DNA from: Caulobacteraceae bacterium
GTDB lineage: Bacteria > Pseudomonadota > Alphaproteobacteria > Caulobacterales > Caulobacteraceae
Direction of reading: 5' to 3'
Length of the DNA stretch: 64,000 nucleotides
NCBI GenBank assembly: GCA_947475845.1
Contig: CANJMO010000004.1
Location: 1 to 64,000 of the forward strand
The translations under genes were made by a program, and so were the position numbers. Positions within the stretch are counted from its first letter, which is position 1. The number at the start of each line of letters is the position of its first letter. The notes beneath the pieces were generated by a model. The model was not told where the DNA came from and made no database searches. It saw only the letters and a list, made by a program, of their open reading frames with translations. Shown here one piece after another: positions 3,328-12,448 of this stretch.

Positions 3328-4035
3328 CTAGCCCGCGACCTCCAGCCCAAAGGCGCGGTAGGCAGGCGCTGCCGCCGGCGAGGCCAGGAAGTCGATCAGG
3401 ATCTGGGCCGCCTTAGGCTCACGGCTATCGGTGAAGATCGCCGCGGCGAACTGCGTGGTGCTCTGCAGGCCGGGTGGGAACGGGCCGACGATCTCGGCAT
3501 GCTCGACGGCCTTCAGCTCGCTCATCTGCTGCACCGCCAGGTCGGCGCGGCCGTCGAACAGGGTCTCGGCGGTGAAACCGCCCGGAACCACAGTCGCCTT
3601 GGCGTTGACCTGATCGGCTATGCCCATCGTGGCCAGCATGGCGGCAACGTATTGGCCGCTAGCCCCGCTCTTGGAATAGGCCAGCGAGCGGGCCGCCAGC
3701 AGGGCCTGCCTAAACGCTTCGGGGGTCGAGATGTCGGGATGCTTGGAGCCGGGAGCGACGGCCACGCCGAGGCCGCTCAGAACCACAGGCTTGCGGCTGG
3801 CTGATGTGACCACCCCGTCCTTGGCCAAGGTGTCGATGGTGTCGCGCACCGCCACGATCACATCGGCCTTCTGCCCGGCCTTCAGCCGGCCCAGCAGCAG
3901 GGCGGTCGGGTCATAGACCGCGTTGAGCCCGATTCCGGTGCTCCGCTGGAACGCGGCGGCGAGGGTTCCCGCCACGGCGCCCTGGATCGCCAGGGTGCAC
4001 ATCAGCGACACGGTGGTCTTCTGGGTTTCCGCCAC
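3328..4035 (-). CDS. Leaderless ModA-like type 2 periplasmic-binding-fold protein (possible aconitate isomerase)
   Basis: Last gene of the seven-gene carboxylate operon. It encodes 235 residues with the fold signature of ModA-type solute-binding proteins: an early VSLMCTLAIQGAV strand, LLGRLKAGQKADVIVAV, and a C-terminal PKAAQILIDFLASPAAAPAY helix as in ModA. The GTG at 4035 is chosen because AAGGA sits just upstream and overlaps the TAA stop of prpF; longer starts run through prpF. From this start there is no signal peptide and no lipobox, and the operon has no ABC permease or ATPase, so a transport role is unlikely. From memory, the characterised Pseudomonas aconitate isomerase belongs to this fold, and with an aconitase and CitMHS transporter alongside, a cytoplasmic isomerase is a reasonable inference. 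Confidence 0.75.
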   Translation of the reverse strand: MAETQKTTVSLMCTLAIQGAVAGTLAAAFQRSTGIGLNAVYDPTALLLGRLKAGQKADVIVAVRDTIDTLAKDGVVTSASRKPVVLSGLGVAVAPGSKHPDISTPEAFRQALLAARSLAYSKSGASGQYVAAMLATMGIADQVNAKATVVPGGFTAETLFDGRADLAVQQMSELKAVEHAEIVGPFPPGLQSTTQFAAAIFTDSREPKAAQILIDFLASPAAAPAYRAFGLEVAG

Positions 4036-4045
4036 GGCTTTTTCC

Positions 4046-5188
4046 TTACGTCTGTGACCAGACCTGGCCGTCGAACAGCGGCCTTGCCGTGCGATAGAAC
4101 GAACCGGACCGCGCGGTACAGACTCCATCTTGCTGCACCACGTCGGCGGCGACGGTCAGCACGCCCGACGGCATGCCCAGGCGAACCGGGCCGGTGTCGG
4201 GGGCGCCCTCGCGCAAGCAGGCGTGGACCAGGCTGCCTGTGATCCGCGCCGCCACCGCCGAACAGAGCGACGCGGTCAGCGGCAGGGCGCGGTGCGGCTG
4301 GCCCGAGGAGATGAAGCGCAGGTTCACGTCGTAGGCGTCGGCCCTCAGCGTCTGGCCGTCGAGGGTGACGAAGTCGGTCGGGCTGGAGACCATCGCGACG
4401 TAAGGAACGGTCATGGTCACCGCCGCCGTCTCGATGTCAGGCGCTATGCCCATGGCCACGGAAGCCTGCCGGCGGATCACCTGCAACTGCTCCAGCAGTT
4501 CGGGCATGGCGTCCAGCTCGCCCGGCAGCTCGGTCCCGGTCAGGCCGACGTCCGACGCCCGCACGAACACGCAGGCGTTGGCGGCGTCGATCATCGAGCA
4601 TTCGATCTCGCGCCCTTCGTGCATCACCGTCCCGCGCGGCGAGCCGGTGGGCAGAAGCTTGCCCGTGGTCGCGCCGCCGGGTTGCAGGAAATCGAGCCGG
4701 ATCGGCGCTCCGGTCCCCGACACTCCGGGAATCTCAAGCTCGCCCTCGTAGACCGGCTTGCCGTCCTGCATGGGAAAGGCGGCGTGGATGATCTTGCCGG
4801 TGTTGGTGTTGAAGATGCGCACGAGACCGCTGTTGCCGCCCGCCGCGATGATCCCGTAGTCGAGCGCGAACGGGCCGATCGCCGAGCTCATGTTGCCGCA
4901 GTTGCCGCGGTAGTCGACGTAGGGCCGGTCCACCATCACCTGGCCGAATGTGTAGTCGACGTCGGCGTCTTCCCGCGCCGAGGGGCCGACCACGCAGACC
5001 TTGGACAGGGACGAGATGCCGCCGCCCATGCCGTTCATCTGCCGCCCGTAGGGATCGGGGCTGCCCAGGGCGCCGATGAAGATGGGGTCCCATTCGGCGC
5101 GGTCGGCCGGCAGGTCGTCCAGTCGGAACATCAGCGCCTTGCTGGTGCCGCCGCGCATGAAGCGGCAGGGATAGGCGGTCTCGGTCAT
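4046..5188 (-). CDS. prpF: PrpF/GalD-family isomerase (methylaconitate or 4-oxalomesaconate type)
   Basis: A 380-residue member of the PrpF family, cytosolic enzymes that move a double bond by proton abstraction in compounds such as 2-methylaconitate or 4-oxalomesaconate. Visible motifs are RFMRGGTSKALMF near residues 9-21, LGSPDPYGRQMNGMGGG near 41-57, SSLSK with Lys63 and GNCGN with Cys97. The spacing of this Lys and Cys equals that of the two catalytic residues reported for Shewanella PrpF. The SPDPYG form is closer to PrpF than to GalD. Its ATG overlaps the aconitase stop (ATGA) and its TAA overlaps the ribosome site of the next gene, so translation is coupled. No PrpB or PrpC is present, so the substrate need not be methylcitrate-derived. 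Confidence 0.85.
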   Translation of the reverse strand: MTETAYPCRFMRGGTSKALMFRLDDLPADRAEWDPIFIGALGSPDPYGRQMNGMGGGISSLSKVCVVGPSAREDADVDYTFGQVMVDRPYVDYRGNCGNMSSAIGPFALDYGIIAAGGNSGLVRIFNTNTGKIIHAAFPMQDGKPVYEGELEIPGVSGTGAPIRLDFLQPGGATTGKLLPTGSPRGTVMHEGREIECSMIDAANACVFVRASDVGLTGTELPGELDAMPELLEQLQVIRRQASVAMGIAPDIETAAVTMTVPYVAMVSSPTDFVTLDGQTLRADAYDVNLRFISSGQPHRALPLTASLCSAVAARITGSLVHACLREGAPDTGPVRLGMPSGVLTVAADVVQQDGVCTARSGSFYRTARPLFDGQVWSQT

Positions 5189-11714: not shown

Positions 11715-12430
11715 GCCGACCGTTGCGCTTTCAGGTAGGCCGTCTGCGACGGCGGGAGGTGAGCGGCGCAGAGGCCGACGAGCGTCTTGCGGTCGCCCGC
11801 TTCGATGGCCTTGATGATCCGCCAGTGCTCCCGGCGCGCCCGCTCCAAGCCGCGGGGATCGGACAGGGAATGGAAGCGGACCCCGTGCGCCTGGCGCGCC
11901 AGGTCCTCGATAGTCGCCGCCAGCACCGGGTTGCCGCTGGCGCCGAACAGCGCCCGGTGAAAAGCCTGATTGGCGTGGAAGGCCCGGATCGAATCCCCTT
12001 CGCTCACCGCCGCGTCATGCTCGGCCTGCACCTGAGTCAAAGCCGCCACCAAACCGGGCGCTCCGGGCAGGGGCATGGTGCGAGCGGCTTCGGTCTCGAC
12101 AAGGGCGCGCACGGCGTAGAGATGCTCGACCTCCGCCCGGCTCCAGCTTTTGACCACCGCCCCCCGATTAGGGATCCGATCGATCAGTCCGATCCGTTCG
12201 AGCTCGACCAGGACCTGGCGCACGACGTGACGCTTGGCCCCCAGGCGTAGGATCAATTCGTCCTCGATCAGCCGCTGGCCCGGCCGCGCTTGGCCCAGCA
12301 CAATTTCCTCCTCCAGCCGCGCCACCAGCGAAGGCAGAACGTCGGCGGCCCGCTCGGGCGCTTGGGCGGGGGATGCAGCGGCAAAGCTTGTCACGGCGTC
12401 TGGGTTAGCCCGCCCTCTTGAACGTGGCAA
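11711..12430 (-). CDS. GntR-family regulator with FCD domain
   Basis: Local regulator and first gene of the carboxylate operon. A winged helix lies at about residues 28-95 (LEEEIVLGQARPGQRLIEDE, then a helix-turn-helix around RHVVRQVLVELERIGL) and a helical FCD effector domain follows, with EVEHLYAVRALVE and a C-terminal KTLVGLCAAHL. FCD proteins bind small carboxylates through a metal site. The start is uncertain: the frame opens with TTG at 12430, directly against an 18-bp palindrome, and a GTG at 12394 is an alternative; neither has a clear ribosome site. It likely represses its own operon until substrate appears (inference). Confidence 0.87.
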   Translation of the reverse strand: MPRSRGRANPDAVTSFAAASPAQAPERAADVLPSLVARLEEEIVLGQARPGQRLIEDELILRLGAKRHVVRQVLVELERIGLIDRIPNRGAVVKSWSRAEVEHLYAVRALVETEAARTMPLPGAPGLVAALTQVQAEHDAAVSEGDSIRAFHANQAFHRALFGASGNPVLAATIEDLARQAHGVRFHSLSDPRGLERARREHWRIIKAIEAGDRKTLVGLCAAHLPPSQTAYLKAQRSA

Positions 12431-12448
12431 CAGATTATCGATAATCTG
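12431..12448. promoter_or_regulatory. Perfect 18-bp palindrome, candidate operator of the GntR/FCD regulator
   Basis: CAGATTATCGATAATCTG is identical to its own reverse complement and AT-rich in a GC-rich region. It sits at the head of the seven-gene operon, against the first possible start codon of the regulator. Short perfect palindromes upstream of their own gene are usual operators for GntR/FCD proteins. Binding is inferred. Confidence 0.7.

What the first reader, a model, noticed from the sequence alone, without database searches (positions are those of the whole stretch)
3328..12448. Seven-gene carboxylate operon with aconitase, PrpF, CitMHS and a leaderless ModA-like protein
All seven genes are on one strand with overlapping or near-abutting ends. 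No step of the methylcitrate cycle other than the AcnD/PrpF-like pair is present. A ModA-like protein with no signal peptide and no ABC partners sits last. My inference is a cytosolic tricarboxylate pathway, with trans-aconitate or a hydroxylated relative imported by CitMHS, isomerised by the ModA-like or PrpF protein and hydrated by aconitase. The IlvD-like and hydroxyacid dehydrogenase enzymes do not fit simple trans-aconitate use, so the true substrate may be new.
Basis: partly seen in the sequence, partly recalled or inferred. Interest (0 to 1): 0.7.

Follow-up and report, generated by a model that had tools for sequence, protein, structure and literature searches.

The report
Tricarboxylate operon with leaderless ModA-like enzyme
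A soil-type bacterium carries a tightly packed gene set that probably imports a citrate-like plant acid and feeds it into central metabolism, and its last gene belongs to a large, apparently unrecognised family of 'transport-binding' proteins that have lost their export signal and seem to work as enzymes inside the cell.

Summary
The seven-gene operon is real: all genes on the minus strand, gaps of -4 to +18 bp, and a perfect 18-bp palindrome, unique in the genome, at the regulator start. It combines two modules found separately elsewhere. Module A (CitMHS, AcnD-sister aconitase, PrpF) recurs as PrpF-aconitase-CitMHS in Rhodococcus and resembles trans-aconitate/tricarballylate loci; PrpF keeps both catalytic residues. 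Module B (IlvD-type dehydratase, HIBADH-family dehydrogenase, leaderless ModA-like protein) recurs in Novosphingobium PP1Y. The methylcitrate cycle is excluded as the role: the genome has a PrpC-PrpD-PrpB set elsewhere. The ModA-like protein is not a molybdate-binding protein. It belongs to a clade of signal-less proteins (hundreds of loci) found in acid-sugar operons (OtnK/OtnC/OtnI, alpha-hydroxy-acid oxidase) and hydroxyquinol operons, which points to a cytosolic keto/enol or cis-trans isomerase. No complete copy of the operon was found elsewhere. Best reading: catabolism of a hydroxylated citrate-type acid (hydroxycitrate is the best chemical fit; substrate confidence about 0.25). Simple trans-aconitate use explains module A only. 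Verdict: new variant of a known kind; the leaderless ModA-like family is the more interesting part.

The parts
3328..4035 (-). Leaderless ModA-like (SBP_bac_11) protein, 235 aa, GTG start
   Evidence: PF13531 124 bits; TIGR01256 43 bits, cut-off 62.5; AlphaFold2 pLDDT 93.5, ModA fold, TM 0.72-0.82; within the leaderless clade
4046..5188 (-). PrpF-family isomerase, 380 aa; catalytic Lys63 and Cys97 (K73/C107 of S. oneidensis PrpF)
   Evidence: PF04303 352 bits; below the PrpF and OMA-tautomerase cut-offs; residues; tree
5185..7770 (-). Aconitase-family hydratase, 861 aa, sister branch to AcnD; cluster cysteines and citrate-binding motifs kept
   Evidence: PF00330/PF00694; NCBIfam; motifs and tree; 52% to AcnD
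7767..9083 (-). CitMHS-family citrate:proton symporter, 438 aa
   Evidence: TIGR00784 556 bits, cut-off 259.7
9093..9980 (-). HIBADH-family dehydrogenase, 295 aa; loop SGMxxRA and catalytic-Lys motif KLVNQ shared with the IlvD-linked subclade
   Evidence: PF03446/PF14833; loop alignment; best solved relative 2-hydroxymethylglutarate dehydrogenase 3cky
9999..11714 (-). IlvD/Edd-family dehydratase, 571 aa; Cys58, Cys126, Cys199 at the usual cluster positions
   Evidence: NF004784 810 bits, cut-off 539; cysteines; 78% to Novosphingobium PP1Y; best solved relatives dihydroxyacid dehydratase 8ej0 and L-arabinonate dehydratase 5j83/9evv
11711..12430 (-). GntR/FCD transcriptional regulator, 239 aa from TTG (true start possibly an in-frame GTG about 12 codons downstream)
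   Evidence: PF07729 and PF00392
12431..12448 (.). Perfect 18-bp palindrome CAGATTATCGATAATCTG, candidate autoregulatory operator
   Evidence: one exact copy in the genome; 0 expected in shuffles of the window
12598..13770 (-). Secreted 7-bladed beta-propeller lactonase-family protein, possible eighth member (inferred)
   Evidence: PF10282 223 bits; same strand, 167 bp upstream of the regulator; a lactonase of this family also lies beside the second extra aconitase on contig C10 and in Pantoea/Erwinia loci with leaderless ModA-like genes

Best explanation
A GntR-controlled catabolic operon for a hydroxylated, citrate-like tricarboxylate. CitMHS imports the acid (a secreted lactonase may first open its lactone). 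IlvD dehydrates the 2,3-dihydroxy acid to a 2-oxo acid; for hydroxycitrate the product would be oxalosuccinate. The HIBADH-family enzyme reduces it to an isocitrate-type beta-hydroxy acid. The leaderless ModA-like protein acts as a cytosolic proton-transfer isomerase on the oxo/enol acid. PrpF moves the double bond between trans and cis aconitate-type acids, and the AcnD-like aconitase (de)hydrates them into the TCA cycle. Shown: gene content, operon structure, family assignments, catalytic residues of PrpF, leaderless clade membership. Inferred: order of steps, substrate identity, and that the ModA-like protein is an enzyme.
For: Seven co-directional genes with gaps of -4 to +18 bp and a palindrome at the regulator. 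CitMHS far above its cut-off. PrpF groups (SH-aLRT 99) with a Rhodococcus PrpF in an AcnA-CitMHS-ICL/PEPM cluster and a Hydrogenophaga PrpF near TcuA; a PrpF next to CitMHS also on a Pseudomonas plasmid; TcuA-like genes near many alphaproteobacterial relatives. PrpF K63/C97 kept. The aconitase keeps cluster and citrate-binding motifs; a housekeeping-type AcnA and a PrpC-PrpD-PrpB set exist elsewhere, so this one is dedicated. IlvD+HIBADH recur as neighbours, with a tripartite tricarboxylate transporter in Nitratireductor and S. fredii, and with a leaderless ModA-like gene in Novosphingobium. The closest solved HIBADH acts on a branched beta-hydroxy dicarboxylate. IlvD enzymes naturally remove a tertiary 3-OH next to a 2-OH, which is the geometry of hydroxycitrate (established chemistry, inference).
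Against: No other genome with the complete operon was found, so joint function rests on operon structure alone. Oxalosuccinate decarboxylates spontaneously to 2-oxoglutarate, so the dehydrogenase and aconitase would not be strictly needed for hydroxycitrate. No described bacterial hydroxycitrate pathway turned up. Nearest relatives of the ModA-like protein are in C4 acid-sugar operons, not tricarboxylate ones.
Confidence: 0.42

Rival explanations
1. Trans-aconitate (or tricarballylate-derived aconitate) assimilation: CitMHS imports it, PrpF isomerises trans to cis, aconitase hydrates. IlvD, HIBADH and ModA-like genes serve a second, co-regulated substrate.
For: PrpF-family TarA/TbrA are proven aconitate isomerases (PMC11495376; PMC5690661); PrpF-CitMHS(-aconitase) recurs without the other three genes.
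Against: Leaves three of six structural genes unexplained inside one tightly overlapping operon.
Confidence: 0.25
2. Sugar-acid or aldarate/tartrate catabolism: lactonase, IlvD, HIBADH and ModA-like protein process a di- or polyhydroxy acid to a 2-oxo acid; aconitase and PrpF act on its unsaturated products.
For: IlvD is close to sugar-acid dehydratases; HIBADH resembles tartronate semialdehyde reductases; leaderless ModA-like genes and 7-bladed lactonases co-occur in tetronate operons; Methylobacterium L119 joins an alpha-hydroxy-acid oxidase, ModA-like and IlvD.
Against: No kinase, aldolase or OtnC in the operon; CitMHS and aconitase are unusual for sugar acids.
Confidence: 0.17
3. Branched dicarboxylate route like nicotinate fermentation (hydroxymethylglutarate dehydrogenase, dehydratase, methylitaconate isomerase, dimethylmaleate hydratase).
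For: Best solved relatives of HIBADH and PrpF are 2-hydroxymethylglutarate dehydrogenase 3cky and 3-methylitaconate isomerase 3g7k.
Against: No B12 mutase and no PrpB-type lyase in the operon; the dehydratase is IlvD-type; the hydratase is a one-piece AcnD-like protein, whereas the known dimethylmaleate hydratase is two-subunit (own knowledge).
Confidence: 0.06
4. Methylcitrate cycle variant using AcnD/PrpF.
For: The aconitase is sister to AcnD.
Against: Both proteins score far below the curated AcnD/PrpF cut-offs; PrpF lies outside the methylcitrate clade; the genome has PrpC-PrpD-PrpB on C32.
Confidence: 0.03
5. Cross-cutting alternative, compatible with any of the above: the ModA-like protein is a cytosolic ligand-binding or regulatory protein, not an enzyme.
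For: It keeps the type II binding-protein fold; no catalysis has been shown for the clade.
Against: It sits among enzymes of C-H acid chemistry (tetronate, hydroxyquinol, IlvD loci); aconitate isomerase of Pseudomonas WU-0701 is a reported enzyme that I recall as ModA-like (memory, not tested).
Confidence: 0.3

Closest known systems
trans-Aconitate assimilation system tarA/tarB (Bacillus velezensis, PMC11495376) and tbrA
   Same: PrpF-family isomerase in an operon with a carboxylate transporter; product enters through aconitase
   Different: Here a CitMHS transporter instead of MFS TarB, a GntR/FCD regulator, a dedicated AcnD-like aconitase, plus IlvD, HIBADH and ModA-like genes
AcnD-PrpF branch of the 2-methylcitrate cycle
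   Same: Aconitase is sister to AcnD; PrpF family with both catalytic residues
   Different: Scores below both curated cut-offs; PrpF of another clade; no PrpB/PrpC beside it; the genome has a PrpC-PrpD-PrpB set elsewhere
Tricarballylate locus tcuABC
   Same: PrpF relatives of the same clade lie near TcuA
   Different: No TcuA, TcuB or TcuC here
Four-carbon acid-sugar operons LtnD-OtnI-OtnK-OtnC
   Same: Closest clade of the leaderless ModA-like protein sits in such operons
   Different: No OtnI, OtnK or OtnC here; C6 tricarboxylate-type enzymes instead
ModA molybdate-binding protein
   Same: Fold (TM 0.72-0.82 to E. coli and Klebsiella ModA)
   Different: No signal peptide, no ModBC, ModA's Tyr position replaced by the QQxSE motif, below the TIGR01256 cut-off
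Nicotinate fermentation enzymes of Eubacterium barkeri (HgD, Mii, DmdAB)
   Same: Same dehydrogenase, PrpF and aconitase superfamilies
   Different: No mutase or lyase; IlvD in place of the Hmd-type dehydratase

Membership tests
ModA molybdate-binding protein | Score above TIGR01256 cut-off | tested here: not met
   43.1 against 62.5 bits
ModA molybdate-binding protein | Export signal and ModB/ModC neighbours | tested here: not met
   No hydrophobic N-terminus; neighbours are enzymes and a transporter of another type
ModA molybdate-binding protein | Type II binding-protein fold | tested here: met
Leaderless ModA-like clade (defined here) | No signal peptide, GASG / QQxSEL / GPxP motifs, clade membership | tested here: met
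Aconitate isomerase (Pseudomonas WU-0701 type) | Sequence relation to the characterised enzyme | not testable with these tools
   The paper is not held; no sequence available
Aconitate isomerase (Pseudomonas WU-0701 type) | cis/trans-aconitate isomerase activity | not testable with these tools
   needs assay
PrpF family isomerase | Pfam PrpF match, catalytic Lys and Cys | tested here: met
2-methylaconitate isomerase PrpF (methylcitrate) | Above TIGR02334 cut-off and within the methylcitrate PrpF clade | tested here: not met
   279 against 440.55 bits; tree
AcnD | Above TIGR02333 cut-off | tested here: not met
   937 against 1420 bits, although sister to AcnD
trans-Aconitate assimilation (tar) system | PrpF-family isomerase plus transporter in one operon | tested here: met
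trans-Aconitate assimilation (tar) system | MFS importer TarB | tested here: not met
   CitMHS instead
IlvD/Edd dehydratase | Family profile and cluster cysteines | tested here: met
Tetronate (Otn) pathway | OtnK and OtnC present | tested here: not met
   none in the operon
CitMHS symporter | TIGR00784 above cut-off | tested here: met
   556 against 259.7 bits

The most novel reading that the evidence does not exclude
Leaderless ModA-like proteins form a large, unrecognised family of cytosolic enzymes (2-oxo/enol or cis-trans isomerases of hydroxy- and oxo-carboxylates) built on a periplasmic binding-protein fold and recruited into tetronate, hydroxyquinol, IlvD-type and, here, tricarboxylate operons; this operon couples one to a new pathway for a hydroxylated tricarboxylate such as hydroxycitrate.
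Probability: 0.35. Interest if true: 0.78.

Novelty: new variant of a known kind. Interest (0 to 1): 0.52.

Why it matters
If the leaderless ModA-like proteins are enzymes, hundreds of genes now labelled 'molybdate-binding' or 'substrate-binding' would be misannotated catabolic isomerases, and the missing or redundant isomerisation steps in acid-sugar and hydroxyquinol operons would become testable. The operon itself gives a candidate route for hydroxylated tricarboxylates, for which the paper searches made here found no described bacterial pathway.

Tried and rejected
A single-sequence scan of genome contigs for the ModA-like protein found nothing; an alignment-based scan found 427 relatives, of which 80 were kept. 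The Caulobacterales search for the ModA-like protein found only two signal-bearing relatives outside the own genome. HIBADH orthologues at E<=1e-60: only the own genome among 399 sampled Pseudomonadota genomes (only six candidates per genome were scored, so some may be missed). Regulon by palindrome: the only other near-match (C23, 2 mismatches) lies inside a coding sequence, so rejected. Methylcitrate role rejected. Oxalomesaconate tautomerase role for PrpF rejected: the Caulobacterales PrpF genes in gallate/protocatechuate-type clusters form a separate clade. ModA-like protein as sole replacement for OtnI rejected as a general rule, because OtnI is also present in several loci. Literature on hydroxycitrate catabolism and on cytosolic ModA-like enzymes: nothing relevant. 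CitMHS relatives in Sphingomonadaceae (65-67%) and Pantoea are not linked to the other genes. A promoter/terminator consensus scan was not informative.
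Full report
OBSERVATION. The seven genes are real and well formed. On the minus strand the order is GntR/FCD regulator, IlvD/Edd dehydratase, HIBADH-family dehydrogenase, CitMHS symporter, aconitase, PrpF, ModA-like protein. Junctions are -4, +18, +9, -4, -4 and +10 bp, i.e. three 4-bp overlaps. High third-position GC (0.80-0.95) supports all frames. A perfect 18-bp palindrome, CAGATTATCGATAATCTG (12431-12448), abuts the regulator's first possible start; it has no second exact copy in the genome and none is expected in shuffles of the window. 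A secreted 7-bladed lactonase gene lies on the same strand 167 bp upstream. A lactonase of the same family also sits next to a second extra aconitase and a GntR regulator on contig C10 of the same genome, and in Pantoea and Erwinia loci with leaderless ModA-like genes; I treat it as a possible eighth member (inference).

GENOME CONTEXT. The window is part of contig C4 of a 2.65-Mb, 101-contig assembly. The genome has a separate housekeeping-type AcnA (C56), a further aconitase (C10), two LeuCD sets (C3, C70) and a PrpC-PrpD-PrpB methylcitrate set on C32. The operon's aconitase and PrpF are therefore neither housekeeping nor needed for propionate.

AROUND PrpF. The window PrpF keeps both residues that matter in S. 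oneidensis PrpF, K73 and C107 (here K63 and C97). It scores below the curated cut-offs for methylcitrate PrpF and oxalomesaconate tautomerase. In a tree it lies outside the methylcitrate clade and groups (SH-aLRT 99) with a Rhodococcus PrpF in an AcnA-CitMHS-ICL/PEPM cluster, a Hydrogenophaga PrpF near TcuA and LeuCD-like genes, and an Agrobacterium PrpF. Of 25 alphaproteobacterial loci with close PrpF relatives, many carry TcuA-like or PrpB/ICL-like genes and two carry an aconitase, but none carries IlvD, the HIBADH of this operon or the ModA-like gene. A Pseudomonas plasmid pairs a more distant PrpF with CitMHS. PrpF-family TarA and TbrA are proven aconitate isomerases (PMC11495376). So CitMHS-aconitase-PrpF is a recurrent tricarboxylate module, most simply for trans-aconitate. 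The aconitase is sister to AcnD (SH-aLRT 97 in an eight-sequence tree) and shares its CNGMSG motif, but has Gln where AcnD has His in the QD motif, and stays below the AcnD cut-off.

AROUND IlvD AND HIBADH. IlvD is 78% identical to a Novosphingobium PP1Y protein. Relatives of the HIBADH (49-53% identity) lie next to IlvD in Phaeobacter, S. fredii, Cupriavidus and Nitratireductor and 4.6 kb from it in Novosphingobium. They share a loop (SGMxxRA in all but Nitratireductor) that replaces the usual SGGxxGA. In S. fredii and Nitratireductor a tripartite tricarboxylate transporter (TctABC) is adjacent. The best solved relative of the dehydrogenase is 2-hydroxymethylglutarate dehydrogenase. This subclade is rare: only the own genome among 399 sampled Pseudomonadota genomes gave E<=1e-60. 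In Novosphingobium PP1Y the same stretch also carries a leaderless ModA-like gene, an SDR, an MFS transporter and TonB receptors, but no aconitase, PrpF or CitMHS.

THE ModA-LIKE PROTEIN. It has no signal peptide under any start. AlphaFold2 gives a confident ModA-type fold (pLDDT 93.5; TM 0.72-0.82 to ModA), but it is not ModA: it is below the TIGR01256 cut-off, and the ModA Tyr position (Y in the ModA-like C35 paralogue) is replaced by a QQxSE(L/I) motif that also marks its signal-bearing relatives. In a tree of 62 sequences the leaderless proteins form one group (SH-aLRT 93) apart from the signal-bearing ones (one leaderless, long-branched own paralogue on C67 falls outside it), and the window protein sits on the acid-sugar side of it. 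Of 36 relatives checked, three have a hydrophobic stretch in any upstream extension, and those extensions are long and doubtful. Contexts: tetronate operons with OtnK, OtnC and sometimes OtnI (17 of 80 loci); alpha-hydroxy-acid oxidase and/or Asp/Glu racemase without Otn genes (11 of 80); a Bradyrhizobium block without obvious pathway genes (most of the other 52). On plasmids it also follows intradiol dioxygenases in clusters with maleylacetate reductase and alpha-hydroxy-acid oxidases. The shared theme is chemistry at C-H bonds next to oxo or carboxylate groups. I therefore read the family as cytosolic proton-transfer isomerases or tautomerases (inference, about 0.6). Signal-bearing relatives beside genes that look like TctA/TcuA by eye exist in other Caulobacterales (L018, L019) and fall in a different clade.

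MECHANISM. One substrate class would use every enzyme: a hydroxylated citrate. IlvD enzymes remove a 3-OH (tertiary in their natural dihydroxyvalerate substrates) next to a 2-OH; applied to hydroxycitrate this gives oxalosuccinate. A beta-hydroxyacid dehydrogenase could reduce it to an isocitrate, and aconitase with PrpF and the ModA-like protein would bring stereoisomers and double-bond isomers to cis-aconitate. Hydroxycitrate occurs naturally as lactones, which would fit the secreted lactonase. All of this is inference. The weak point is that oxalosuccinate decarboxylates spontaneously to 2-oxoglutarate. The strongest rival is trans-aconitate use plus a second co-regulated substrate.

NOVELTY. 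No complete operon was found elsewhere, while both halves occur separately, so this looks like a lineage-specific assembly: a new variant of known carboxylate operons. The more important lead is the leaderless ModA-like family. Its Pseudomonas counterpart (aconitate isomerase; PMC8871043 and PMC13188880 cite Yuhara et al. 2015) could not be compared because neither paper nor sequence is held; that it is ModA-like is my recollection.

Noticed in passing
window 2527-3321 (+), 13832-14530 (-), 22746-23738 (+), 53054-53908 (-), 61826-62623 (-), 62620-63471 (-): A secreted protein family without any significant Pfam, NCBIfam or PDB sequence match has 53 copies in this 2.65-Mb genome; in 110 sampled Caulobacterales most have none, a few have 1-3, one other has at least 22. 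A moderate-confidence model (pLDDT 71) looks like a lipocalin-type beta barrel, TM about 0.4.
   Followed up: partly
window 2527-3321; L013 10090-10923; L015 2252-3127: Members of that 53-copy family lie within about 0.4 kb of three of the six SBP_bac_11 (ModA-like) genes of the genome; in the window the two genes are 6 bp apart and convergent.
   Followed up: partly
L199 8288-14462 (own contig C10): A second extra aconitase next to a GntR regulator, a 7-bladed lactonase and an MFS transporter that is 44% identical to the one near IlvD/HIBADH in Novosphingobium PP1Y: possibly a parallel carboxylate-lactone locus.
   Followed up: partly
L051 9962-10684, L083 7986-8687: Leaderless ModA-like gene directly after an intradiol dioxygenase in Pseudarthrobacter/Arthrobacter plasmid clusters with maleylacetate reductase: candidate 3-hydroxymuconate/maleylacetate tautomerase.
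   Followed up: no
L086, L087, L088, L089, L107, L110: Tetronate operons that contain OtnI as well as a leaderless ModA-like protein, so the latter is not simply an OtnI replacement.
   Followed up: partly
L138 and other Bradyrhizobium loci: A conserved Bradyrhizobium block with the leaderless ModA-like gene between unknown ~233-aa proteins and a Sel1-repeat protein, downstream of a protein that looks like glutamine synthetase by eye; no catabolic genes.
   Followed up: no
window 50695-51321 (+) and 47327-48610 (-): An Asp/Glu racemase-family gene, 44% identical to the ones next to leaderless ModA-like genes elsewhere, near a protein that looks like a LigB-type ring-cleavage dioxygenase by eye.
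   Followed up: no
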